Source: an uncultured bacterium (lineage in GTDB: Bacteria; Chloroflexota; Anaerolineae; J036; Brachytrichaceae). From it: 64,000 nucleotides of DNA. Positions 25,107 to 58,186 of the stretch are shown here, piece by piece. The notes under the pieces were generated by a model. The model was not told the origin of the DNA, did no database searches, and saw only the letters and a program-made list of their open reading frames with translations. Each line of letters opens with the position of its first letter. Position 1 is the stretch's first letter. Position numbers and translations under genes: made by a program. The stretch covers positions 18,957 to 82,956 of the forward strand of contig CAIQQO010000201.1 in the NCBI GenBank assembly GCA_903873965.1, read 5' to 3'.

Positions 25107-27101
25107 ATGACTATCATGAATACGCTTAAAACGCGAACTAAGTTTTCATTTATCGTACTCGTCATGACAATCGCGGGTACTGTAGTGTGGTCTTTCCTTC
25201 TGGCGTTAGATCTCATACCCGGGTTACGTGGAACTAACGACTGGAGCTACATGTTCGAAGGGACGCGGGAGCCACTACGACTGCTGCCCTTCACAATAGG
25301 TTCTTTAGGATATCTCGGTGTTGGGGCATGGCTGATGAATCGAAAGCATCCAGCTGGGCTGCTAATCTGGTCTGTTACAGGCACAGTTGGGTTGACGCTG
25401 GCTGGCATATACATCAAAGAATCCCCGTTCTTTAAGTTGTTTGGGCTGACAGTCGCTCCTGATGGCACGGGTTGGCACATAGCAGCAGCTGCCATTGTCG
25501 ATCTGGGCAAGACATTGCGTGATTGGCCAGCCTACATGGTCTATGCTTATAAGTATTCATACCATCTGTTTATATCACCACCCGGTGCGGTTGTTTTTTA
25601 TTACGGACTCATTCAGCTACTGCAAGGATTGCCTGGAATTGCACACCTGATGTCAGAGCCATTGCGCCAGATTATGTGTCAGAATTTCACTATCGCTGAA
25701 TATTCTGATGCTCAACTTGCTGCTGCATGGGCAGGTATCTTAATGCCTCTTTGGAGCGGGTTGACAGTGCTGCCTTTATATTCGCTCGGGAAACGGCTTA
25801 TTGGCCAACGCGCTGCACGATGGAGCGTGTTATGGTGGCCACTAATCCCGAGTGTGATTATGTTTACCGGCACATTGAATACATTCTTTCCATTCCCGAC
25901 CGTTTGCCTGGTGTTGTTACTACTTGAGGGGTTAGCGCTTGGCAAGTGGTGGCTGGTTGTGCTTGCAGGAATCCTAGCATCTGTGATGACCTTCGTAAAT
26001 TTCGTTTTCTTCCCGTTGATATTTCTTGCTGGCATGCTTGTGTTACTTCATTACTTTGCCCGTACTAGCTTGTACAAGGCATCTGCAGAGGTGTTTGCTC
26101 CGAAGCGAGCTCCGTGGTTATGGCCATTCAACATTGGGATGCTCTTTGGTATAGGCCTCCTGTCAGTGTGGGTAGTCTATGACGCCTTCTTCGGCGTAAC
26201 CTTTTTCGATATTCTGCGTACATCTGCAGCATCGCACTTGGTACTAGATCGCCCATATTTCGCGTGGTTATTCCTGCATCTATACGACTATTTCATGTTT
26301 ACGGGCTGGCCATTAGTTGTCGTAGCAGCGTTGAGTGTAATTGCAGTTTTACGCACTTACTTTCGACATAAGAGACTTGATAATGCCGGTGTCCTTTTGA
26401 TATCGGTCTTCGTTACACTGATAACCCTTGATTTATCGGGTACGCTGCGCGGCGAAACTGGGCGCCTTCTCGTGTTCTTTACACCATTTTTCTTGTGCGG
26501 TGCAGGATGGATTGCTGAATCGAGCTCTCTAGAAGGTAACACGCATGCTGTATGGCTGTTGACGGTCGCGCAGGTGTTTGTAGTTGGCGTAATGCTTTCA
26601 TCATTGCATGTCATGGGGTTGGTGTGGAATACGCCATCTCCTATTGCACCGCCATTGCAAAATGCAGAGTCGCCACTGCAATCGATACCAAGTGGGGCTA
26701 CATTCGATCATGCGCTGCGCCTGATAGGGTTTTCTGGTGTTATTCAATCCGTCATGGATGCGAGGCCTATTAGTCCAACCCTCGACTTGTGGTTGGAATG
26801 GCAAGCAACGGGTCGCGTCAACTATCCGTATTGGTTATCACTTCTTCCGGTAGCGCCAGACGGCACAGTTGGCCAATCGACCCTACATCAGCCGTTTGAG
26901 AATCGGTTTCCAACGACTTGTTGGGCACCAAGTACTGGCGTGATCCGTGAGCATGTCAAGATCATCGTGCCCGCATCGTTTAAAGATGGAGCCTATTGGG
27001 TCAGTCTGGCATTAATGGATCGCTCTGGAAATCGCACAGAAGTGTTGATGCCTGATGGTTCCAGGGACGACCAGACTGGGCTAGGCCCATTTGTCAGATG
27101 A
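25107..27101 (+). CDS. GT-C-like polytopic membrane protein, paralogue 1
   Basis: The 664-residue protein has about 11 membrane helices and a soluble C-terminal beta domain of about 130 residues. That layout, with the C-terminal WLEWQA...PYWLSLLPVAPDGTVGQS...PFENRFPT pattern, is like glycosyltransferase-39-type proteins of Chloroflexota, which use lipid-linked sugars at the membrane. I cannot see a certain catalytic Asp/Glu motif, so the reaction is open. It is clearly homologous to the 661-residue protein at 29700-31685 along the whole length (KTRTSLYKASAEVFAP versus RTSLYTASAQAFAP; IVDLGKTLRDWPAYM versus IVDIGKTLQNWPAFM). This copy is visibly more AT-rich than its neighbours. The start has no good ribosome site; the ATG at 25116 is possible. 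Confidence 0.75.
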   Translation: MTIMNTLKTRTKFSFIVLVMTIAGTVVWSFLLALDLIPGLRGTNDWSYMFEGTREPLRLLPFTIGSLGYLGVGAWLMNRKHPAGLLIWSVTGTVGLTLAGIYIKESPFFKLFGLTVAPDGTGWHIAAAAIVDLGKTLRDWPAYMVYAYKYSYHLFISPPGAVVFYYGLIQLLQGLPGIAHLMSEPLRQIMCQNFTIAEYSDAQLAAAWAGILMPLWSGLTVLPLYSLGKRLIGQRAARWSVLWWPLIPSVIMFTGTLNTFFPFPTVCLVLLLLEGLALGKWWLVVLAGILASVMTFVNFVFFPLIFLAGMLVLLHYFARTSLYKASAEVFAPKRAPWLWPFNIGMLFGIGLLSVWVVYDAFFGVTFFDILRTSAASHLVLDRPYFAWLFLHLYDYFMFTGWPLVVVAALSVIAVLRTYFRHKRLDNAGVLLISVFVTLITLDLSGTLRGETGRLLVFFTPFFLCGAGWIAESSSLEGNTHAVWLLTVAQVFVVGVMLSSLHVMGLVWNTPSPIAPPLQNAESPLQSIPSGATFDHALRLIGFSGVIQSVMDARPISPTLDLWLEWQATGRVNYPYWLSLLPVAPDGTVGQSTLHQPFENRFPTTCWAPSTGVIREHVKIIVPASFKDGAYWVSLALMDRSGNRTEVLMPDGSRDDQTGLGPFVR

Positions 27102-29699: not shown

Positions 29700-31685
29700 A
29701 TGGACAATCATAAGGGGCGATCCCGTGCTGCGCTAGGCATCGCCATCATACTGATATTTTCGATTGGCTGGGTAGCGCTTCTTGCGCTCAACCTGGTGCC
29801 ACAATTGCGCGGTGATTTTGGGTGGCGTTGGCCGTATGAGCTGCCTCAGGCTGCGACGCGGGTTCTACCTCTGGGCGGGGGCGTGATCTTCTTTATGGCT
29901 GTCGGCGCATGGCTGCAAGGGCGCCAACGTGCCCGCTGGCTGTTGTTCTGGTCTATCCTCGGCACTGTGGGCATCACGATGGCGGGACTGTACGTAAGCG
30001 AGTCGCCCTTGTTCAAGCTGTACGCCGTGGCGGTGAGTCCGGGCGTTACCAGTTGGCATTACGCCGCTGCGACGATCGTGGATATCGGGAAGACTTTGCA
30101 GAACTGGCCTGCATTCATGCAGGTGGCGGTGAAGTATTCAACCCATCTGGGCATCGTTCCGCCAGGCGCTGTTCTGATCTATTATGAGTTCAACCAGTTA
30201 TTGCAGGGCGTGCCCGCTGTAGCGCATATGCTGGCTGCGCCATTGCGTCTGGCGATGTGCCAGAATTTTGAACTGGCGCAATACAGTGACGCCCAGCTAG
30301 CCAGTGCGTGGTTCGGCATACTCATGCCCTTGTGGGCTGGACTTACCGTGCTGCCCATGTATCGGCTGGCCATGCGCATGGTGGGAGAGAAGGCCGCGCG
30401 TTGGTGTGTGATCTGGTGGCCGCTGATTCCGGGAATCCTGATGTTTACTGGCTCGTGGAATACTCTTTTTCCACTGCTGGCTGTCTGTGACATACTCCTG
30501 TTGGTCGAAGGTCTATTACGCGGGCGGCGCTGGCTTGTCGTTGCCTCAGGGCTGCTGGCATCGCTGTTGACCTTTATCTCGTTCGCGTTCTTTCCTGTGC
30601 TTTTCCTCGCCGGCATGCTTGTGCTTGTTGGCTATCTTGCGCGCACCAGTCTATATACTGCGTCGGCGCAAGCCTTTGCGCCTGGTCGGTTTCCCTGGCT
30701 TTGGCCGCTCGTTGTGGGCGTTTGTTACGGCGCAGGACTGCTTGTTGTGTGGGTGTTGTACGATGTCCTTGCCGGCGTGAGTTTTTTCGACGTGTTGCGT
30801 ACCGCTTCATCGGCGCACCTGGCGATGGATCGTCCGTACTTGCCGTGGCTGTTCATGCATCTCTATGATTACTTCATCTTTACCGGCTGGCCTGTTATAT
30901 TGCCGGCTCTCATGGCCGTTGCCGCAGCCGTGCTGACGTTGAAACGACGGCAGGCGCTCAATACTGGCGCGCTATTGGCCTTGTCAGCAGGCGCCACATT
31001 GTTGCTGCTTGATCTCAGTGGCACGATGCGTGGCGAGTCGGGACGCATTTTACAGTTCATGACGCCCTTCTTTCTGGTCAGTGCTGCCGGATGGTTGACC
31101 AGCGTGGCAAAGACGCGAGCTCAGCGTGCCGGCTGGCTCATTACCCTTGCTCAGGGGCTGGTGGTCGTCGTCATGATATCCGTCCTGCGCGTCATGGGCG
31201 CAGAGTTTATTACGCCTGCGCCCGTCGCGTCGCCTGAACTGGTGCAAGCATCGCCGCGCGAGAGTTTCCCCAATGGCGCTCTTTTTGCGCAAGCGCTCAA
31301 GCTCAATACCTTTTCTGGCTATGTATCGGATGCGGTCGATGCGCAAGGCGTTAGCCGGCCCGTGTTGAATGTGTGGCTGGAATGGCAATCGAGCGGGCAG
31401 GTGGATACGCCATACTGGATGTCCCTGCTGCCCGTCGCGCCTGACGGTACACTCGGGCAAGCCGTACTGCGACAGCCATTCGACACCAGGTACCCCATCA
31501 CGTGTTGGTTGCCCCGCAGTGGCGTCATCCGCGAGCAATTCACAGTCACTTTACCCGCTACGACCAAAGAGGGTGGGTATTGGGTCAGCCTGTCGTTGCT
31601 TGATCGCACTGGCAAACCTGCGTCCGTGGTTATGCCGGATGGGTCGCTCGATACACAGACTGGTCTTGGTGCCTTTGATCGCTGA
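29700..31685 (+). CDS. GT-C-like polytopic membrane protein, paralogue 2
   Basis: The 661-residue membrane protein has about 11 helices and the same C-terminal beta domain as the protein at 25107-27101. Both end in a DxQTGLGxFxR tail (DTQTGLGAFDR here). Base use here is GC-rich like the neighbours, unlike the AT-rich paralogue. Function is likely transfer of a sugar from a lipid carrier, by similarity in layout to GT39-type proteins; no experimental homologue is known to me. It follows the ZIP gene closely and ends before a clear terminator at 31795. Confidence 0.75.
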   Translation: MDNHKGRSRAALGIAIILIFSIGWVALLALNLVPQLRGDFGWRWPYELPQAATRVLPLGGGVIFFMAVGAWLQGRQRARWLLFWSILGTVGITMAGLYVSESPLFKLYAVAVSPGVTSWHYAAATIVDIGKTLQNWPAFMQVAVKYSTHLGIVPPGAVLIYYEFNQLLQGVPAVAHMLAAPLRLAMCQNFELAQYSDAQLASAWFGILMPLWAGLTVLPMYRLAMRMVGEKAARWCVIWWPLIPGILMFTGSWNTLFPLLAVCDILLLVEGLLRGRRWLVVASGLLASLLTFISFAFFPVLFLAGMLVLVGYLARTSLYTASAQAFAPGRFPWLWPLVVGVCYGAGLLVVWVLYDVLAGVSFFDVLRTASSAHLAMDRPYLPWLFMHLYDYFIFTGWPVILPALMAVAAAVLTLKRRQALNTGALLALSAGATLLLLDLSGTMRGESGRILQFMTPFFLVSAAGWLTSVAKTRAQRAGWLITLAQGLVVVVMISVLRVMGAEFITPAPVASPELVQASPRESFPNGALFAQALKLNTFSGYVSDAVDAQGVSRPVLNVWLEWQSSGQVDTPYWMSLLPVAPDGTLGQAVLRQPFDTRYPITCWLPRSGVIREQFTVTLPATTKEGGYWVSLSLLDRTGKPASVVMPDGSLDTQTGLGAFDR

Positions 31686-47382: not shown

Positions 47383-47436
47383 GCAAGTTATTACTCCCTG
47401 TCAAAGCACTCGTATTGTGCATCATAATTGACGGAT

Positions 47437-48324
47437 ATGTTTAGTACACAACCTCTCTCACAGCGTGACCCGCGCTGGTCTGATTGGCCGCTGGGTTTTG
47501 GTGATGCATCGACCACCATTGGCAGTGATGGATGTACGTTGACATGCTTGACGATGGCGGCGAACGGTTTTGGCTTTACGGAAACGCCCCAGTCACTCAA
47601 TGACAAGCTCAAGGCGCTTGGCCAGAATATGGGATTTTCCGGCCCATTGATCGTCTTTTCAGGGTTACCGTCGGCGTTGGCTGGTATTTCACTCCAGAGC
47701 GTTGTTTTTTGCAGAAATACACCCGCGCCAATGGCCGATATCGACGCGGCACTGGATACCGGTTTCCCTGTCATTGTGGAACTCGATCATTCGACGGCGC
47801 CAGGTCTGCAGAATCACTGGGTGATGATCGTCGGCCGCAGCCAGGGCGATTATCTGATTAATGACCCATGGCCGGTTCCTGCAGAACCCCCGGTATCACT
47901 GACAGGTCGATTTGGATTTGCAGGCACGCCTGCGCAGATCATCACGATTGCCGTGTTCTACCAGGGACCATTGACGCAAGCAGTTCAACCACTTACGTTG
48001 TCTGTAGTTGACACGCAGGAAATCGCCAACTTCGGCGGTCTGGCATTGCGTTTTGCGCCTATGGTGGGACGCGTGATCAAACGGCTCCCGGCTGGGACAC
48101 GTTTATCGGTGAACGAAGCTGCCGATCAGGCCATGCAGAAGGTCGGTCAGTGGGGTGAATGGATTGCAGTCACCACGCTAGATGGCATGAGTGGTTATGT
48201 GGCAGCCTGGCTGGTTCAGGCGAATCACAACCCGATGCTTCTATCACTGGCGCCTCATATCCATTCATTACCCAAGGTGGCCGACCCGGCGTTGATTGGC
48301 GTCGTTCAACCACCTTTGCGCTAG
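47437..48324 (+). CDS. C39-like cysteine peptidase with SH3 domain
   Basis: The N-terminal 170 residues match the peptidase C39-like family: SQRDPRWSDWPLG, a Cys in DGCTLTCLTM as the likely nucleophile, and NHWVMIVGR with the catalytic His, then NDPW. Residues about 200-275 form an SH3b-like domain (LALRFAPMVGRVIKRLPAGTRL...YVAAWLV). There is no clear signal peptide. Such proteins act on cell-wall peptides or propeptides. The start at ATG 47437 is used instead of the TTG three codons earlier. Confidence 0.82.
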   Translation: MFSTQPLSQRDPRWSDWPLGFGDASTTIGSDGCTLTCLTMAANGFGFTETPQSLNDKLKALGQNMGFSGPLIVFSGLPSALAGISLQSVVFCRNTPAPMADIDAALDTGFPVIVELDHSTAPGLQNHWVMIVGRSQGDYLINDPWPVPAEPPVSLTGRFGFAGTPAQIITIAVFYQGPLTQAVQPLTLSVVDTQEIANFGGLALRFAPMVGRVIKRLPAGTRLSVNEAADQAMQKVGQWGEWIAVTTLDGMSGYVAAWLVQANHNPMLLSLAPHIHSLPKVADPALIGVVQPPLR

Positions 48325-48359: not shown

Positions 48360-51300
48360 TCAGGTCGTTCTGCGTTTCATCGCGTTGATGTGCGCGTTGA
48401 GGATCAGCGCAGGCTCAGCGGCAGACATCATCGCCGATACCTCGTTGCCGTTCAGAACGGTGAATCGTTCGTTGTCACCTGCCTCGGTGACAGCCAGTGC
48501 AATCTGGGGTGCAATATCCACGTTGCGGCCGGGACGACCCAGCGCAATGACGATCCCACAAGGATGCTGTGCCATGCCGACGTCCATAGCGCCATCGAGT
48601 TTATCCATGGCATCTGTAAGGTTCTTCACACTGCGTTTCAATGCCTCATTGTCAGCCAGGAACAGCAGTGCAATCGGCCTGTTTAGCTTTGAAGCTCTTG
48701 TTGCCTTTGTGGCATAAATGCGCACGGCATCCACGTCGATTCCCGCCATCAACTCAAGGTCCAGCGATGCTGCGAATGATGAACCCAGTTGCGCCACGTG
48801 CTTGCGGTTGGTCCAGACCGCGCCTTCGCGCAGCATAGCGGTGGTCATGGCGCGCCACGCACTAGCCCAGCGTCTCATTTGGACGCGTCCCGCCGCATGC
48901 AGACGTTGACCCTCCATGCGCACTGCCTGGCCGCCGGCATGTTTCTGCTCATATCGTTGTATGGCGTATTGGCGGAAGGGGCCGGGGATGGACGGTACGT
49001 CTTCTGGCGTAACGTCGCCATATGCAAACAACTGTCTTTGAATTGTCTTCTCCCACCTTGGCCAATGGGCATCAAGTTTCGTCTTGTTTGCCGTATTCAT
49101 GCTGCGCCACGGTTTGAACAGTGCAATGGCGAGGGGAACACCAAATGACCGGCTTAATCGCAACCGACTTGCAGCCACCAGGGCAGCTAGCAGCATAAAC
49201 AAAGCTACCATGACTGACCACCATAGAGGCGTCAATGCATTCAAGGTGCGGACCTGCTGCCATGACCATATCCTTAACAGCATCCACACCAGGGGGACAC
49301 GGTTTGCAGTGATTCCCGGTTCGGACTGCGTTATCTCTGCGCCCCATGCAGCAATCATCTGGCTGCGGCCGTCGGGCAGAATGCGAATTGCACCGCTTAT
49401 GGCACTCACGCCGGGGAGTGTTCGCGCCATGATTTCACCACCGCCATGCAAAGCCCAGATGATGTCACCGCTAGGAAGGCGGCCGGCAACACCGTACGTA
49501 TTGATCGGCAGGAACAAGTCGAGCACGTTGCCGATGTTTGCCGGGCGTTCCTGCCACGCAGCGGAGCCGTTACTCACAACGTATTGCATCGGCGTAAACA
49601 CGGCTTTGGTTTTGTTATAAGATGCGTCTAGTGGAATCACAGTGATATGGTCGGTTCTCAGGTTTAGTCCCGGCGTTGCATTATCACCGTTGGAGGTTAA
49701 CCCGCGTACCGTGAGTTCACCCAATCCCACATTGGCAGCGCGCCATGTTTGCCCTGCATCATCTGATTGAAAAATACCCCGATCTGTTGCGGCAGCGCTG
49801 AGTAATCCACTGGCGTCTTCGATGGCAATATCCAGGAATTCGATATCGGTAAGGCCATTGGATACAGGTTTCCATGTCACGCCTGAATCGGTAGATCGAT
49901 ATGCGCCGCCCGCCATGGTGCCTGCATACAGCGCGCCCGCCACGCGATCATAGACTACAGACAGGATGCTGTTGTGGTACATTCCCCCGATGGCTTGACT
50001 CCAGTACTGATCGGCATTGCCCATGCGGAACAGCCCCGATTTCACGGCCGCAAACACACCACCATATCTCTCATCAACAGCTAGCGCGATGATGTTGCCA
50101 GGCAGGTTCTTGGCCATTTGCTCCCAACCGCCGTTGACCATGCGATACACACCGCCGCTGAGTGTTCCAGCATAGACGGTGCCATCACGTTCATCGACTG
50201 CGAGCGTTTCAACGTTATTGTCAGGTAGTCTACCGCCATGGCTGCTCCAGGTGAAGCCAAAGTCATTCGACACTAGCACACCACCTTTATAGGCGCCAGC
50301 ATATACCGCTGAATCATGGCTACTGACAGCCACTGTGCGCGCGAACACGGTCTGCAGAGGTTGAACGATGGTCCATGAGGCGCCATCACTTGTGGATCGC
50401 AACACGTCGCCATTAGCTGTAACCGCGTACGCGTTGCCATGACGATCATCGACAGCTATGGTCTGGATGTCTTGTCCGATTGCTTTTGGTGTGGCCAAGG
50501 TCCAGTTGATTTTGTCTAGTGCAGTGCGATATAAACCACTGCGTGTCCCGGCATAGAGCGTGTTCGTACCATGATCGATGCCAAGCGATTGAACAACGGC
50601 GTTTGGCAAACCAGTATTGATGGGTGTCCAGTTCGCGCCGTTTTCTGTTGAGTGAAAAACGCCGCCGCCCAGGAGTCCCGCATAAAGAGCGCCATCCTGC
50701 GGATTGACCAGCAATGTTTGCACATGCCGTGCATTGGGATTCTGTTCTGCGGATTGCCAGTGAGCGCCGCCGTCAGATGTCATGAAGATGCCGCTGCTGG
50801 TAGCAGCCAGCAAGCCCGTGCCATCTGGTTTTAGCAACAGGGAATGCACCAGCGTGCTGCTTAAGCCTTGATCTATGCGCACCCATGTAGCAGCGCCATC
50901 GCGCGATTTCATAATGCCGTCCAGTGTTGCCGCATAAATCACACCATCGGATCGGTCTTGCACCAATGCCTGGACGTTGCCATCGGTCAATCCAGTCAAA
51001 TTAACTGTAAAACCGCTGCCCTGTTTCGCTATCTGCAGAATGCCGTGATCAGTGCCTGCCAGGATGATGCCGGTATTGACATCTCTCAATAGCGAAATCA
51101 CGCTGACAACGGAGGTGTTACTGGTCAACAAGTCCCATGTCTCTGTGACATTGGTGCTGTGCCAAAGTCCGCTGTCGGTGGCGACATATACCTCGCCGGG
51201 TTCATCGCCAAGGAGAAACTGGTGAACGTAGGTGTTGCTGACGCCGGGGCCGATGGTCTGCCATGTGGCACCCTGGTCGATTGAGGTATACATGCCGTAG

Positions 51301-51821
51301 CCTAGCATTCCTGCGTACATGACAGGCACACGCGGGTCGACCGCGATAGTCAGCAGCTTGTCGCCACGCATGCCGCCGCCTAACTGTTGCCAGGATTCGC
51401 CATGGTTGGAACTGCGGAAAAGCCCGCCGCCAAACACGACGGTGTACATGACATCGTGGTCTTTGTCGTATAGCAGATCCTGAATATCGATGCCCGATAG
51501 ACCATGACTTGCAGGCTGCCACGTGACCCCGCCGTCAATGGATTTGAACACGCCGCCATTCGAACCGGCATACAGATCGCCCGTTTTGGTATCCATCTCA
51601 AGCGCGCGCACAACTGAGAGCGCTGCCGGTCCAGACGCCACATGGGTAAGTTCGATAGCGGGGGTAAGTGCGTTATCGGCTATGGTTAATGCTGTAGTGA
51701 ACAGTATGATGACCATCGCTACTGCAATGATGGTCTTTATCGGCCTGAGAACACGCGTCGGCCTGAATGGCCATGTGCGTGTTGTTGTTAATGAACTTAC
51801 CACTGACTTAAGTTTCTGCAT
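48360..51821 (-). CDS. Giant membrane protein with extracellular BNR/Asp-box propeller and unknown cytoplasmic domain
   Basis: The 1153-residue protein starts at 51821 (MQKLKSVV; CAAGG six bases upstream; the ORF-track start at 51839 is a GTG). One helix near residues 30-50 (TIIAVAMVIILFTTALTIA) is followed by about 650 residues with 13 or more Asp-box repeats (SIDGGVTWQ, NHGESWQQ, DQGATWQT, DSGVTWKP). These form sortilin/YCF48-type beta-propellers. A second helix (WWSVMVALFMLLAALVAA) lies near residue 870. The last 270 residues are a soluble cytoplasmic domain with a predicted beta-alpha core (RPIALLFLADNEALKRSVKN, CGIVIALGRPGRN) that I do not recognise. Two helices place the propeller outside and the tail inside, a receptor-like layout. 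Confidence 0.82.
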   Translation of the reverse strand: MQKLKSVVSSLTTTRTWPFRPTRVLRPIKTIIAVAMVIILFTTALTIADNALTPAIELTHVASGPAALSVVRALEMDTKTGDLYAGSNGGVFKSIDGGVTWQPASHGLSGIDIQDLLYDKDHDVMYTVVFGGGLFRSSNHGESWQQLGGGMRGDKLLTIAVDPRVPVMYAGMLGYGMYTSIDQGATWQTIGPGVSNTYVHQFLLGDEPGEVYVATDSGLWHSTNVTETWDLLTSNTSVVSVISLLRDVNTGIILAGTDHGILQIAKQGSGFTVNLTGLTDGNVQALVQDRSDGVIYAATLDGIMKSRDGAATWVRIDQGLSSTLVHSLLLKPDGTGLLAATSSGIFMTSDGGAHWQSAEQNPNARHVQTLLVNPQDGALYAGLLGGGVFHSTENGANWTPINTGLPNAVVQSLGIDHGTNTLYAGTRSGLYRTALDKINWTLATPKAIGQDIQTIAVDDRHGNAYAVTANGDVLRSTSDGASWTIVQPLQTVFARTVAVSSHDSAVYAGAYKGGVLVSNDFGFTWSSHGGRLPDNNVETLAVDERDGTVYAGTLSGGVYRMVNGGWEQMAKNLPGNIIALAVDERYGGVFAAVKSGLFRMGNADQYWSQAIGGMYHNSILSVVYDRVAGALYAGTMAGGAYRSTDSGVTWKPVSNGLTDIEFLDIAIEDASGLLSAAATDRGIFQSDDAGQTWRAANVGLGELTVRGLTSNGDNATPGLNLRTDHITVIPLDASYNKTKAVFTPMQYVVSNGSAAWQERPANIGNVLDLFLPINTYGVAGRLPSGDIIWALHGGGEIMARTLPGVSAISGAIRILPDGRSQMIAAWGAEITQSEPGITANRVPLVWMLLRIWSWQQVRTLNALTPLWWSVMVALFMLLAALVAASRLRLSRSFGVPLAIALFKPWRSMNTANKTKLDAHWPRWEKTIQRQLFAYGDVTPEDVPSIPGPFRQYAIQRYEQKHAGGQAVRMEGQRLHAAGRVQMRRWASAWRAMTTAMLREGAVWTNRKHVAQLGSSFAASLDLELMAGIDVDAVRIYATKATRASKLNRPIALLFLADNEALKRSVKNLTDAMDKLDGAMDVGMAQHPCGIVIALGRPGRNVDIAPQIALAVTEAGDNERFTVLNGNEVSAMMSAAEPALILNAHINAMKRRTT

Positions 51822-51839
51822 ATGTACCTTGCATCTCAC

Positions 51840-52550: not shown

Positions 52551-53561
52551 TTACCTCGCGATTCCATTGGGATTCAGAGTTATCTGAATGTCGACGCCCG
52601 TAGGTGATGCATCGAGTACCCAATAGCGCGCAGATAATCCCGCATTTTGATAGGCAGTGCGCATGGCTTGACCGATGCCTTCATGATTTTCACGGGCGAA
52701 TGCCAGCATGCCCGGCCCTGCGCCGCTTAAACATACGGCTACGGCGCCATGATCCAGCGCAGCCTTTTGACAAGCTGCGGCGCCCGGTATCAATGGAATG
52801 CGATAGGGTTCGTGAATGCGGTCTGCCATCGCCCGCGTGAGTAGTGTGTCATCGCCGTTGCGCAAGGCTTCGGCTACCAGCATCGCGCGCCCGATATTGA
52901 GTACGGCATCTGATCGGTTCAATGTTTTGGGTACGGCTGCACGCGCCTCAATTGTCAAGAAGTTGTATGCCGGTACGCAGATGACGACTTTCCAGGGTGG
53001 TAGTTGCACCCGTTCAGCCACCACGGTCAATCCATTGTAGGAAATCAGGATAAGCCCACCGTACAAAGCCGGCGCGACGTTGTCGCCATGACCTTCAAGC
53101 GCAGTGGCGCGTTCCAAAATGGCTTCCAGATTGACTTGCTTGTAAGCCAGTGCATTGGCGAAGATCAAGCCGGCCAGCACCGCAGTTGAACTGGAACCCA
53201 TACCACTGGCGCATGGGATGTTATTGCGGGCGACGATACGATATCCCTGGGTTTTATATATCTCAGGGCCGATCAGACCCGGCTGGGCAAAATTGATGCG
53301 GTACAACTCACCGCGCATGGTCTGCGCGATCAGGTTGTTCCCGCCGTTTGGCAAAATGTCGGCGCCTTCTCCGTGAGATTCGACCGAGATGACTGGTTCG
53401 CCAGGCACAAGGTGCAGCTCAAACGTATTCCACAGCGTCACCGCCATTCCCATGCAGTCAAAACCAGGGCCGAGGTTGGCACTGGTGGCAGGAACCCGTA
53501 CACTGACTGACGTAGGGGATGACTCGCGTTTCTCCCCGTCTGGCTTAGTGTCTGATATCAC
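52551..53561 (-). CDS. thrB: Homoserine kinase
   Basis: GHMP-family kinase that phosphorylates homoserine, the step before threonine synthase. The 336-residue protein shows PATSANLGPGFDCMGMAV, the ATP loop PCASGMGSSSTA, and SGAGPGMLAF near the C-terminus. The start ATG overlaps the thrC stop by 4 bases (ATGA), so the two are translationally coupled. A polar N-terminal extension of about 17 residues (SDTKPDGEKRESSPTS) precedes the core. Confidence 0.97.
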   Translation of the reverse strand: MISDTKPDGEKRESSPTSVSVRVPATSANLGPGFDCMGMAVTLWNTFELHLVPGEPVISVESHGEGADILPNGGNNLIAQTMRGELYRINFAQPGLIGPEIYKTQGYRIVARNNIPCASGMGSSSTAVLAGLIFANALAYKQVNLEAILERATALEGHGDNVAPALYGGLILISYNGLTVVAERVQLPPWKVVICVPAYNFLTIEARAAVPKTLNRSDAVLNIGRAMLVAEALRNGDDTLLTRAMADRIHEPYRIPLIPGAAACQKAALDHGAVAVCLSGAGPGMLAFARENHEGIGQAMRTAYQNAGLSARYWVLDASPTGVDIQITLNPNGIAR

Positions 53562-54643
53562 AGGTCAAGCCTCGCTAGCAGGGCTTCGATCTTCGGCTCG
53601 ATGATCTGCGGTGTTGCTGAAAGGCGAATAGCCGTATCAGGGTCTTTCAAACCATGCCCGGTGAGTACTGCGACGACGCGCTTTCCGTGCAGGTTGATCT
53701 TGCCTTCGCGCAAAGCTTTGGCCAGACCAGCCAGTCCTGCAGCGGACGAGGGTTCACAGAACACGCCTTCGTGGCGCGCGACAAGCTGGTATGCGTGCAG
53801 GATTTCATCGTCACTCACAGCGTAAATCTGGCCGTCGGATTCTTCCAGAGCTGTCGCGGCTTCGTGCCAGCGTGCCGGATTGCCGATGCGAATAGCGGTA
53901 GCAATGGTTTCGGGATGCTCTACAACATGACCGAGGACGATGGGCGCCGATCCTGCTGCTTGTGCCCCCAGCAACTGTGGGCGATTTGACACTACATGAT
54001 CGTTGAAATACTCTTGGAAACCAAGCCAGTAGGCGGTGATATTTCCCGCATTGCCCACAGGCAGGCATAGCCAGTCGGGCGCATCCCCAAGGACATCGCA
54101 TACCTCAAAGGCAGCCGTTTTCTGTCCCTGTAACCTGGCTGGATTGATCGAGTTCACCAGTGCTATGGGCGCGCGCTGTGTTGCTTCCCGCACCATGCGC
54201 AGCCCGTCGTCGAATGACCCGTTGATTGAGATGACTTGCGCTCCGTAGCTCAAGGCGCCGGCGAGTTTTCCAGCGGCAATCTTGCCATCCGGCACCAGCA
54301 CCACGCACTTCAAGCCTGCGCGCGCGGCATAGGCCGCGGCAGACGCAGCCGTGTTGCCTGTGCTGGCACAGATGACGGCGCGTGCGCCATCCGCAACAGC
54401 CTGTGTCATGGCGGCGGTCATGCCGCGATCCTTAAAGGAGCCAGTTGGATTGAGTCCCTCATATTTCAGATACAGCTCGAAACCGCCACCCAGAATGGCG
54501 GCCAACGCAGGCGCTGGTATCAGCGGCGTGTTGCCTTCAAGCAAGGTGACGGGAGGCACCGATGAGGTCAGTGTTATGCGCTCGCGATAGTGTGCGATGA
54601 CGCCACGCCAGGGCGCAGATATACGGCTGGGTTGTAGTGACAT
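53558..54643 (-). CDS. thrC: Threonine synthase
   Basis: PLP enzyme that makes threonine from O-phosphohomoserine. The PLP lysine is in NPTGSFKDRGMT; CASTGNTAASAAAYA and PVGNAGNITAYW are the phosphate-binding and family loops. At 361 residues it belongs to the shorter class typical of archaea and Chloroflexota. It is coupled to thrB downstream, and the deleted MscS-like gene lies 60 bases upstream on the same strand. Confidence 0.97.
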   Translation of the reverse strand: MSLQPSRISAPWRGVIAHYRERITLTSSVPPVTLLEGNTPLIPAPALAAILGGGFELYLKYEGLNPTGSFKDRGMTAAMTQAVADGARAVICASTGNTAASAAAYAARAGLKCVVLVPDGKIAAGKLAGALSYGAQVISINGSFDDGLRMVREATQRAPIALVNSINPARLQGQKTAAFEVCDVLGDAPDWLCLPVGNAGNITAYWLGFQEYFNDHVVSNRPQLLGAQAAGSAPIVLGHVVEHPETIATAIRIGNPARWHEAATALEESDGQIYAVSDDEILHAYQLVARHEGVFCEPSSAAGLAGLAKALREGKINLHGKRVVAVLTGHGLKDPDTAIRLSATPQIIEPKIEALLARLDL

Positions 54644-55141: not shown

Positions 55142-58100
55142 ATGGCGGAAACATTCATCTATATGCAGGCCCGGATGGCGTGTGATGTAATCGTGGCAGG
55201 CAGCGCTACAATCGAGCTGCAAATGGAACTGAACACACCGATAGACTATGGCGTGGGCGAATGGAATGCTAATGAACTGGGCAATCACCGGGTAGTGTTG
55301 CGCGTTAGCGATGCGACGGATGCCGTTCGCATTCGCATCCCGTGGCGGCGCAGAGATCAATCGCCCGAGGCAAAAGCCATCATCATCGTGGACGCTGCTA
55401 CGAACGAACCAGTGACTCATATCGCGAGGTTCGAAATCGGGCGTGAGTCTGGCGATATCGGTTTTCAGCCCGTAAGTGGCCCAGGCTTGTACTACGTGTA
55501 CTACTTGCCTTTCATCAACACGGGGCGTGTGAACTATCCTACGATTACCTATCCGCAAGCACCGCCCGCAACGGATTCGGCGTGGCTGGATCGCGTAACG
55601 GCGGAGCGCGACACTTTGCCGATGGCTGCAATCGTCGCGTTTGAAGCTGCTGATGAATTCAACCGATTTACTGAGATGGAAGTGATCGCGACTGAAGCCG
55701 AGGTGGATGTCTTATTAGCAACGTACCCGCACGCCAACTACTTCGTCTTTCCTGAAGATCGCGCGCACGTCATTCGAATGACCGACGATCTGCCGCAACG
55801 CTGGATTACAGCAAAGCCGGGTCAAACTTTACGTGGTGAAGCCTTGCGTGGTGAGTTCTACACTTTCCAACTGGGCGTTTTTGCGGCGCGCCAGGCAGCG
55901 ATGAATGTCCACCTTGTATTCAGTGATCTTCATGCCGAAGATGGTTTCACAGCGATACCGGCTGCGGCTCTGCGCTGCTTCAACCTGGCAGGTGTGTCGT
56001 GGGACGGGCGCGACTTTCAAAAAGTGTTGACCATACCGATGGGTAAGGTGCAGACACTGTGGTGTGGACTGGATGTTCCGGAAGATATAGCAGTGGGAGA
56101 GTATCGTGGGACGATCACAATTTCGGCGCAGAATGCATCCTCTACGACCATTGCCATTCATGTGACCGTTTTGCCCGATCAGATCGTAGATCATGGCGAC
56201 AACGAGATGAATCGGCTCTCGCGGTTGCGCTGGCTTGATTCGCGCATCGCACTCGATGATGAGGTCGTTGCCCCATTCACGCCTATGATCGTGCAGGGCA
56301 ACACGGTAGGCATTCTTGGGCGCGAGGTCAAGATTGGCCCCAATGGTTTACCACAGCAGATTACCAGTCGCTTTGCGCCGGAAATTACCCACTTGATCGA
56401 TGCAGGACGCGATGTACTGAGCGCGCCGCTTGCATTGCTGATTGAGTCGCCGAATGGCGCCGCTTTGCCTTGGACTCATGCGGGTGTGGTATTCACCTCA
56501 CAGACGCCGGGGCGCGTCACCTGGGAGGCGACAAGCGTTGCCGGTGTGATTGACGCACATGTACGTGCTGTCATGGAGTGCGATGGAAATATCGAATACA
56601 CTATGGCATTACGCGCCGGCGAGTCATGCGAACTAAACGATGTGCGCCTGGAGATACCAGTCGCGGGTGACGTGGCAAAGTACTCGATGGGACTGGGACT
56701 GAAGGGCGGCATTATCCCGGGTGAATATATATGGCAATGGGATGTGTCTAAAAATCAGGACGGTGCCTGGATTGGCGATGTCAACGCCGGCCTCCAGTTT
56801 ACGCTGAAAGACGAGTGCTACGAGCGGCCGCTGAATACGAATTTCTACCAGCTCAAGCCACTTGTGATGCCGTCATCTTGGTATAACGATGGGCGCGGAA
56901 GTATCAACATGCACGCGCAGGATGCACAAACATATATCGTGAAGTGCAGCAGTGGTCAGCGTACCTTCAAGGCGGGAGAAACGTTATATTACAACGTGCG
57001 ATTGCTCATCACGCCCTTCAAGCCTATTGATACCAACGCGCAGTGGTCAACGCGGTTCTATCATCGTTACAGTCCTCTCGATACTGTAGCTTCTGCGGGC
57101 GCTAACACCATCAATGTGCATCACGCTACGCCCGTGAATCCATATATCAACTACCCGTTCTTTCGCAACGACGATCTGAAAGCCTATGTCGATGCCGCAC
57201 ATGCGCGTGACATGAAGATGAAGTTGTACTACACCGTGCGCGAGTTGACGAACCGCGCGCCAGAATTGTTCGCCTTGCGCAGCCTCGGTGATGAAGTACT
57301 CACGCGCGGGCCGGGTGGCGGCTGGGCATGGCTGCAGGAGCACCTGGGTGAAGACTACATCGCGGGCTGGTTTGTGCCGGAACTGCAGGATGCGGCGGTG
57401 ATCAACAGCGGTATGTCGCGCTGGCTGAACTTTTATCTCGAAGGACTGGACTGGCTGGCGCGCCACATCGGCATTGATGGGTTGTATATCGATGACGTCG
57501 CCTATGACCGCACGATCATGAAGCGCGTCCGCAAGATACTGGATCGACACCGCTCAGGCGCAGTCATCGACCTGCACTCAGCCAATCAATACAATCCGCG
57601 CGATGGTTTTGCGAACAGCGCCGGTATATACATGGAACACTTCCCGTACCTCAATCGGTTGTGGTTCGGTGAGTATTTCGACTACAACGCCGCGCCTGAT
57701 TTCTGGCTGATCGAGATATCGGGGATACCGTTTGGCCTGATGGGCGAAATGCTGCAGGACGGTGGCAATCCCTGGCGCGGGATGATCTACGGTATGACCA
57801 GTCGCGCGCCGTGGGCAGGCAATCCACAGGCATTGTGGCAAGCCTGGGACGCGTTTGGTATGGCAGATAGCCGCATGATCGGATATTGGGTCGCGGGATG
57901 CCCTGTTCGAACCAGTCATCCAGAGGTACTTGCAACGGTCTATGTTGCTGAAGGGCGCGCGCTGATTGCCATTGCAAGCTGGGCCAAGGAGTCAGTTGTC
58001 GTTACGTTGAGTATCAATTGGACGGCACTGGGTATCGATCCGTCGCATGCCACATTGCGCGCGCCGGCGATGGCTGATTTTCAGGAGGCTGCGTGTTTCG

Positions 58101-58186
58101 AGTTTAATAGTTCGGCCGGGATGCAGAAGCAGAGCAGTGATATTCCGGTCGAGCCCGGGCGTGGCTGGCTGCTCGTGGTTGGGTAA
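55142..58186 (+). CDS. Large glycoside-hydrolase-like protein (GH123/DUF6067-like)
   Basis: The 1014-residue protein has a beta-rich N-terminal half (about 1-620) with immunoglobulin- or jelly-roll-like repeats, then a TIM-barrel-like half (about 650-930): NVHHATPVNPYINYPFF, MKLYYTVRELTNRAPELFALRS, GIDGLYIDDVAYDR and VIDLHSANQYNP. The IDDVAYD and LHSAN phrases recall the GH123/DUF6067 group, N-acetylgalactosaminidase-like enzymes, where an Asp-Glu or Asp-Asp pair acts with substrate assistance. A C-terminal beta sandwich (LIAIASWAKESVVVTLSI) ends it. There is no signal peptide. The start at 55142 is the ORF-track one; the ATG at 55163 is possible. It stands alone. Confidence 0.7.
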   Translation: MAETFIYMQARMACDVIVAGSATIELQMELNTPIDYGVGEWNANELGNHRVVLRVSDATDAVRIRIPWRRRDQSPEAKAIIIVDAATNEPVTHIARFEIGRESGDIGFQPVSGPGLYYVYYLPFINTGRVNYPTITYPQAPPATDSAWLDRVTAERDTLPMAAIVAFEAADEFNRFTEMEVIATEAEVDVLLATYPHANYFVFPEDRAHVIRMTDDLPQRWITAKPGQTLRGEALRGEFYTFQLGVFAARQAAMNVHLVFSDLHAEDGFTAIPAAALRCFNLAGVSWDGRDFQKVLTIPMGKVQTLWCGLDVPEDIAVGEYRGTITISAQNASSTTIAIHVTVLPDQIVDHGDNEMNRLSRLRWLDSRIALDDEVVAPFTPMIVQGNTVGILGREVKIGPNGLPQQITSRFAPEITHLIDAGRDVLSAPLALLIESPNGAALPWTHAGVVFTSQTPGRVTWEATSVAGVIDAHVRAVMECDGNIEYTMALRAGESCELNDVRLEIPVAGDVAKYSMGLGLKGGIIPGEYIWQWDVSKNQDGAWIGDVNAGLQFTLKDECYERPLNTNFYQLKPLVMPSSWYNDGRGSINMHAQDAQTYIVKCSSGQRTFKAGETLYYNVRLLITPFKPIDTNAQWSTRFYHRYSPLDTVASAGANTINVHHATPVNPYINYPFFRNDDLKAYVDAAHARDMKMKLYYTVRELTNRAPELFALRSLGDEVLTRGPGGGWAWLQEHLGEDYIAGWFVPELQDAAVINSGMSRWLNFYLEGLDWLARHIGIDGLYIDDVAYDRTIMKRVRKILDRHRSGAVIDLHSANQYNPRDGFANSAGIYMEHFPYLNRLWFGEYFDYNAAPDFWLIEISGIPFGLMGEMLQDGGNPWRGMIYGMTSRAPWAGNPQALWQAWDAFGMADSRMIGYWVAGCPVRTSHPEVLATVYVAEGRALIAIASWAKESVVVTLSINWTALGIDPSHATLRAPAMADFQEAACFEFNSSAGMQKQSSDIPVEPGRGWLLVVG

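What the first reader, a model, noticed from the sequence alone, without database searches (positions are those of the whole stretch)
48360..51821. Receptor-like giant BNR-propeller protein with an unrecognised 270-residue cytoplasmic domain
Thirteen or more Asp-box repeats are held outside by two membrane helices, with a soluble tail inside. This architecture suggests a surface sensor or adhesin that signals to an unknown intracellular domain. The tail has a predicted beta-alpha core with IALLFLADNEALK and CGIVIALGRPG, which looks like a nucleotide or protein-binding fold, but no P-loop is visible.
Basis: partly seen in the sequence, partly recalled or inferred. Interest (0 to 1): 0.55.

Follow-up and report, generated by a model that had tools for sequence, protein, structure and literature searches.

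The report
Surface propeller receptor lacking its ATPase
This bacterial protein holds a large ligand-binding propeller outside the cell on a two-helix membrane anchor, and its unrecognised inner tail is the coupling domain that in relatives links the same kind of receptor to a STAND-like signalling ATPase, which this lineage has lost.

Summary
In detail: one intact 1159-residue ORF (complement 48360-51839) with a basic N-terminus, one membrane helix, about 15 propeller repeats of ~42 residues (10-11 readable Asp boxes), a second helix and a 269-residue tail. The tail matches no Pfam or NCBIfam family, but it is not an orphan. In roughly 35 Anaerolineae-class genomes the same domain sits between a membrane helix (usually below a BNR propeller) and a STAND-like AAA_22 ATPase. 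In 16 of 25 fetched loci a second ATPase gene (AAA_35) follows directly, often overlapping by 4 bases, ending in two membrane helices, a CHAT protease or a TIR domain. One relative has a receiver domain instead of the propeller. So the tail is cytoplasmic and is a sensor-to-ATPase coupling module: a helical subdomain plus an alpha/beta subdomain, tentatively restriction-endonuclease-like, without conserved catalytic residues. The window protein belongs to one clade (six genomes, two genera; support 100/98) that lost the fused ATPase; neither partner ATPase is found in any of the six genomes. The tail stays conserved. Most likely the receptor now works through an unidentified partner or by clustering; a degenerating leftover is less likely.

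The parts
48360..51839 (-). whole coding sequence, 1159 aa (GTG start; in-frame ATG at 51821)
   Evidence: full-length relatives in five other genomes of two genera
51678..51734 (-). transmembrane helix 1 (aa 36-54), N-terminus inside
   Evidence: hydropathy; 8 K/R and 0 D/E before it
49719..51584 (-). extracellular Asp-box beta-propeller region, ~15 repeats of ~42 aa (aa ~86-707)
   Evidence: Pfam PF15902, PF02012, PF14870; repeat positions
49236..49712 (-). membrane-proximal extracellular segment (aa ~710-868), part of it also seen in the ATPase-bearing relative of the same family (L024/L057: WGAQIT for WGAEIT)
   Evidence: sequences
49170..49226 (-). transmembrane helix 2 (aa 872-890), followed by basic residues inside
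48825..49106 (-). cytoplasmic helical subdomain of the coupling domain (aa ~912-1005)
   Evidence: AlphaFold model m0c6b68cd5a23, mean pLDDT 84; homologous to the juxtamembrane domain of ATPase-bearing relatives, hhalign probability 99.6, E 4e-24
48363..48818 (-). cytoplasmic alpha/beta subdomain (aa ~1008-1159), tentatively restriction-endonuclease-like, no conserved catalytic residues; ends where relatives continue into the ATPase
   Evidence: alignment

Best explanation
The protein is a membrane-anchored surface receptor of a family found mainly in the Anaerolineae class of Chloroflexota. Its outer part (propeller) binds an unknown ligand. The second membrane helix passes the state of the propeller to a cytoplasmic coupling domain (helical subdomain plus a non-catalytic, probably restriction-endonuclease-like subdomain). 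In the ancestral form that domain sits directly on a STAND-like AAA_22 ATPase, which acts with a second AAA_35 ATPase from the same operon that carries the output (two membrane helices, CHAT or TIR). In the lineage of the window the ATPase part and the partner gene were lost once, while the receptor with its coupling domain was kept. The most likely present mechanism is that the tail works as a docking or clustering surface for a partner encoded elsewhere. Shown by computation: topology, homology of the tail, gene order, single loss, absence of both ATPases. Inferred: ligand binding, the switch mechanism, and the present partner.
For: Tail homologous end to end to the domain in front of the ATPase: hhalign probability 99.6, E 4e-24; L024/L057 of the same family has propeller, tail and ATPase in one protein. 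Class survey: domain in 42 of 396 genomes; all 24 loci outside the short-form genomes that were checked have a Walker A motif directly after it, and only the six loci of genera g1 and g8 end there. Gene 2 (AAA_35) follows in 16 of 25 loci, mostly overlapping by 1-31 bases, and carries CHAT (L047), CAP12-type TIR (L032) or a pair of C-terminal helices. No gene-1 ATPase and no gene-2 relative in the six genomes with the short form, against strong hits in G017; no AAA_35 above cut-off in them either. The short form is one clade, 100/98, with ATPase-bearing proteins next to it. Tail constrained: dN well below dS in both subdomains (dS saturated).
Against: No partner identified; no gene neighbour is shared between genera g1 and g8. 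The tail evolves somewhat faster than the ectodomain in several comparisons. The window's genome is only 75% complete, so its own lack of ATPases is weak evidence alone; three of the six short-form genomes are over 90% complete. No experiment exists on any member that I could find.
Confidence: 0.6

Rival explanations
1. Adhesin with a leftover tail: after loss of the ATPase the protein only serves as a surface binder, and the tail is a passive anchor on its way to decay.
For: Both ATPases are gone; the tail is a little less conserved than the propeller in several pairs; no partner gene in the neighbourhood.
Against: The tail is intact in all six genomes of two genera, the fold is predicted at pLDDT 84, and it is under purifying selection by a crude dN/dS.
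Confidence: 0.25
2. The short form acts as a decoy or negative regulator: it binds the same ligand or pairs with other receptors without signalling.
For: Domain-loss forms of receptors are a common source of such regulators (general knowledge); the coupling domain is kept.
Against: The genomes with the short form hold no ATPase-bearing receptor for it to regulate.
Confidence: 0.07
3. The tail is an active nuclease, activated on ligand binding.
For: Weak fold similarity to restriction-endonuclease-like enzymes.
Against: No acidic residue or lysine is conserved on strands 2-3, where the PD-(D/E)XK site would lie; no fold match reaches E 0.001.
Confidence: 0.03
4. The tail lies outside the membrane and is a secreted domain.
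For: None found.
Against: Charge bias at both helices; relatives fuse the domain to an ATPase and to a receiver domain, both cytoplasmic.
Confidence: 0.02

Closest known systems
STAND NTPases (AAA_22 / nSTAND1 / AAA_35 class), as in the prokaryotic conflict systems of PMC7159879 and PMC8195603
   Same: Relatives of the window protein carry a P-loop STAND-like ATPase with a sensor on one side and CHAT, TIR or membrane-helix outputs in the partner gene.
   Different: The sensor here is an extracellular propeller behind a membrane helix; the coupling domain is not in Pfam; the window protein itself has no ATPase. In the passages found by term those papers describe no such receptor.
Sortilin / Vps10 propeller receptors (PF15902)
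   Same: Large Asp-box propeller held outside by a membrane helix with a cytoplasmic part; Pfam match over cut-off.
   Different: No cysteine between the two helices, so no cysteine-rich 10CC module; ~15 repeats; two membrane helices; unrelated tail. The match reflects shared propeller repeats.
YqgP cytosolic N-terminal domain (PDB 6r0j; PMC7231995)
   Same: Best fold match of the alpha/beta subdomain (E 0.003); also a cytosolic domain on a membrane protein, with a core like type II restriction endonucleases that binds metal and regulates.
   Different: Weak match only; YqgP is a rhomboid protease whose domain binds manganese; no metal site was looked for here.
NCBIfam NF045728, F510_1955 family glycosylhydrolase
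   Same: Summed score over seven stretches exceeds the cut-off (186 against 175 bits).
   Different: A propeller-repeat match only; the score adds up many repeats; no evidence of a hydrolase site.

Membership tests
Propeller-TM-coupling domain-STAND receptor family (described here) | extracellular propeller between two membrane helices, N-terminus inside | tested here: met
Propeller-TM-coupling domain-STAND receptor family (described here) | cytoplasmic coupling domain after the second helix | tested here: met
   hhalign 99.6, E 4e-24; model
Propeller-TM-coupling domain-STAND receptor family (described here) | fused AAA_22/STAND-like ATPase | tested here: not met
   protein ends at the domain boundary; no such ATPase elsewhere in the genome
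Propeller-TM-coupling domain-STAND receptor family (described here) | adjacent AAA_35 ATPase gene | tested here: not met
   next gene is a convergent C39-like peptidase; no gene-2 relative in the genome
STAND NTPases | Walker A and Walker B motifs | tested here: not met
   none in the window protein; present in relatives
PD-(D/E)XK restriction-endonuclease-like superfamily | alpha-beta-beta-beta-alpha-beta core | tested here: inconclusive
   predicted order H118-135 E138-146 E149-156 E166-171 H177-194 E204-209; fold matches of E 0.003-0.8 to members, none below 0.001
PD-(D/E)XK restriction-endonuclease-like superfamily | conserved catalytic D and (D/E)XK on strands 2-3 | tested here: not met
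   no conserved D, E or K in the strands
Sortilin/Vps10 receptors | ten-bladed propeller followed by a cysteine-rich 10CC module | tested here: not met
   no cysteine between the helices in the printed sequence; ~15 repeats

The most novel reading that the evidence does not exclude
Anaerolineae possess a family of cell-surface counterparts of intracellular NLR-type immune receptors: an outer propeller recognises a ligand and switches an inner STAND-like ATPase that recruits a second ATPase with CHAT, TIR or membrane outputs; and one lineage, that of the window, has rewired the receptor to a different, unknown partner through the same coupling domain.
Probability: 0.3. Interest if true: 0.75.

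Novelty: new variant of a known kind. Interest (0 to 1): 0.55.

Why it matters
Bacterial STAND ATPases are mostly thought to sense inside the cell. This family joins a surface propeller, through one membrane helix and one conserved coupling domain, to such an ATPase, with a translationally coupled second ATPase that carries exchangeable outputs. The coupling domain is absent from Pfam and NCBIfam. The natural loss of the ATPase in one clade gives a ready comparison for working out what the coupling domain does by itself.

Tried and rejected
A single-sequence scan of genome contigs with the tail found nothing; an alignment of the ATPase-bearing cytoplasmic part was needed. Sequence search of the PDB with the tail profile gave only chance matches. 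PADLOC gave weak matches that reflect generic ATPase, TIR and CHAT domains; the window protein has none. PF13401 across the genomes is too general to test for the partner ATPase (all 14 controls match), so the specific alignments A7 and A8 were used instead. Considered and rejected: hidden ATPase remnant or frameshift downstream (only 35 bases separate the stop from the convergent gene, and the genome-wide profile search found none); conserved neighbour as partner (only the thrB/thrC-like pair, in three genomes of the genus); nucleotide-binding tail (no P-loop, no Rossmann-type match that stood out); active nuclease tail.

Full report
Observation. The ORF is real and intact: complement 48360-51839, 1159 aa. 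Two membrane helices (aa ~36-54 and ~872-890) flank an Asp-box propeller region with about 15 repeats of ~42 residues, of which 10-11 keep a readable Asp box. Pfam places Sortilin-Vps10, BNR and PSII_BNR on it above cut-off. Charges at the two helices put the N-terminus and the 269-residue tail inside. The tail has no family match.

Relatives of the tail. The tail finds 14 of 149 genomes, the window's own included. Five other genomes (same genus and one further genus of the family) have the same architecture and length, 1157-1218 aa, 33-65% identical over the whole protein. The others, including G017 of the same family, have the same domain followed by an ATPase. Aligned as profiles, the two sets match over 244 columns with probability 99.6 and E 4e-24 (L024, itself ATPase-bearing, was placed in the first set). 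A scan of genome contigs with the ATPase-bearing cytoplasmic part fetched 26 loci, nearly all named Anaerolineae or Chloroflexi. In a survey of 396 genomes of the class 42 have the domain; in 400 drawn from the phylum only 4, one of them the window's own, so the domain is largely confined to this class.

What the domain belongs to. In the relatives the order is membrane helix (mostly below a BNR propeller, in a few below a short outer segment) - coupling domain - linker ending in FFGRD or similar - Walker A GGRKIGKT - Walker B LLDEVDALL. Pfam calls the ATPase AAA_22 above cut-off, with nSTAND1 near or above cut-off. In 16 of 25 loci the next gene, usually starting inside the end of the first (4-base overlaps are common), is a second ATPase of the AAA_35 family. 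Its C-terminus varies: a pair of membrane helices around a ~120-residue segment, a CHAT protease domain (L047, E 1.5e-25) or a CAP12-type TIR (L032, E 8e-6). The input varies too: L055 (from a record labelled Microgenomates) has a response-regulator receiver (E 2.6e-15) and L056 a propeller-like region without a membrane helix. The constant element between variable input and the ATPase is the domain that forms the window's tail. This is the main ground for calling it a coupling domain, and it fixes the tail in the cytoplasm.

The window's version. The protein stops at the boundary where relatives continue into the ATPase (alignment, check). Profile searches of the six genomes with the short form found neither the ATPase of gene 1 nor gene 2, while the same searches gave E 4e-186 and 7e-87 in G017. 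AAA_35 is below cut-off or absent in the six. A tree of the coupling domain groups the six short forms with support 100/98 next to two ATPase-bearing proteins, inside a set in which all others have the ATPase; one change suffices, most simply one loss (the root is weak and rests on long branches). dN/dS estimates of 0.1-0.4 for the tail, though with saturated dS, speak against free decay. Gene neighbours are not shared between the two genera.

Fold. AlphaFold2 with 26 sequences gave the tail pLDDT 84 and pTM 0.77: a helical subdomain and an alpha-beta-beta-beta-alpha-beta-alpha-beta subdomain. The latter alone, modelled on L036, gave the same order. Foldseek against the PDB found nothing below E 0.001. 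The scattered best matches include many of the restriction-endonuclease-like fold: YqgP N-terminal domain (E 0.003; its core is described as like type II restriction endonucleases in PMC7231995), RPB5 (its N-terminal domain is, by my own knowledge, filed with that fold), EndoMS, EcoO109I, Shedu, Cap4, SfsA. Unrelated folds such as acetyl-CoA carboxylase segments also appear, so the assignment is tentative. No D, E or K is conserved where the active site would be.

Mechanism. Inferred: ligand on the propeller changes the arrangement of the receptor; helix 2 transmits this to the coupling domain; in relatives the coupling domain controls the STAND-like ATPase, which acts with the second ATPase and its output domain. 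In the window's lineage only the receptor and coupling domain remain, so any signal must pass through another partner or through clustering. Steps on homology, gene order and loss are computed; ligand, switch and partner are not shown.

Literature. Full-text searches found no description of this receptor arrangement or domain; the conflict-system papers PMC7159879 and PMC8195603, searched by term, discuss other propeller and STAND arrangements. Most subscription papers are not held, so an earlier description cannot be excluded.

Noticed in passing
window 47428-48324 (+): Convergent neighbour, 298 aa, Peptidase_C39-like (E 1.1e-7) with a possible bacterial SH3 domain; only 35 bases separate it from the receptor's stop codon.
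   Followed up: partly
window 52551-54643 (-): Homoserine kinase-like and threonine synthase-like genes (named from sequence appearance only) lie upstream on the same strand and are conserved at 76-89% identity beside the receptor in two other genomes of the genus (L019, L020).
   Followed up: partly
window 55142-58186 (+): 1014-aa protein covered nearly end to end by Pfam GH123_N (1363 bits).
   Followed up: no
window 25107-27101 and 29700-31685 (+): Two proteins of 664 and 661 aa without any Pfam match at E 1e-4.
   Followed up: no
second genes of L034, L036-L043, L045, e.g. L036:6797-8494: AAA_35 ATPases with a C-terminal pair of membrane helices around a ~120-residue segment not recognised by Pfam; a possible membrane output module of the receptor operon.
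   Followed up: partly
L055:1855-3966: In a contig labelled Microgenomates the coupling domain and ATPase are fused to a response-regulator receiver domain, a possible link to two-component signalling; wrong binning is not excluded.
   Followed up: partly
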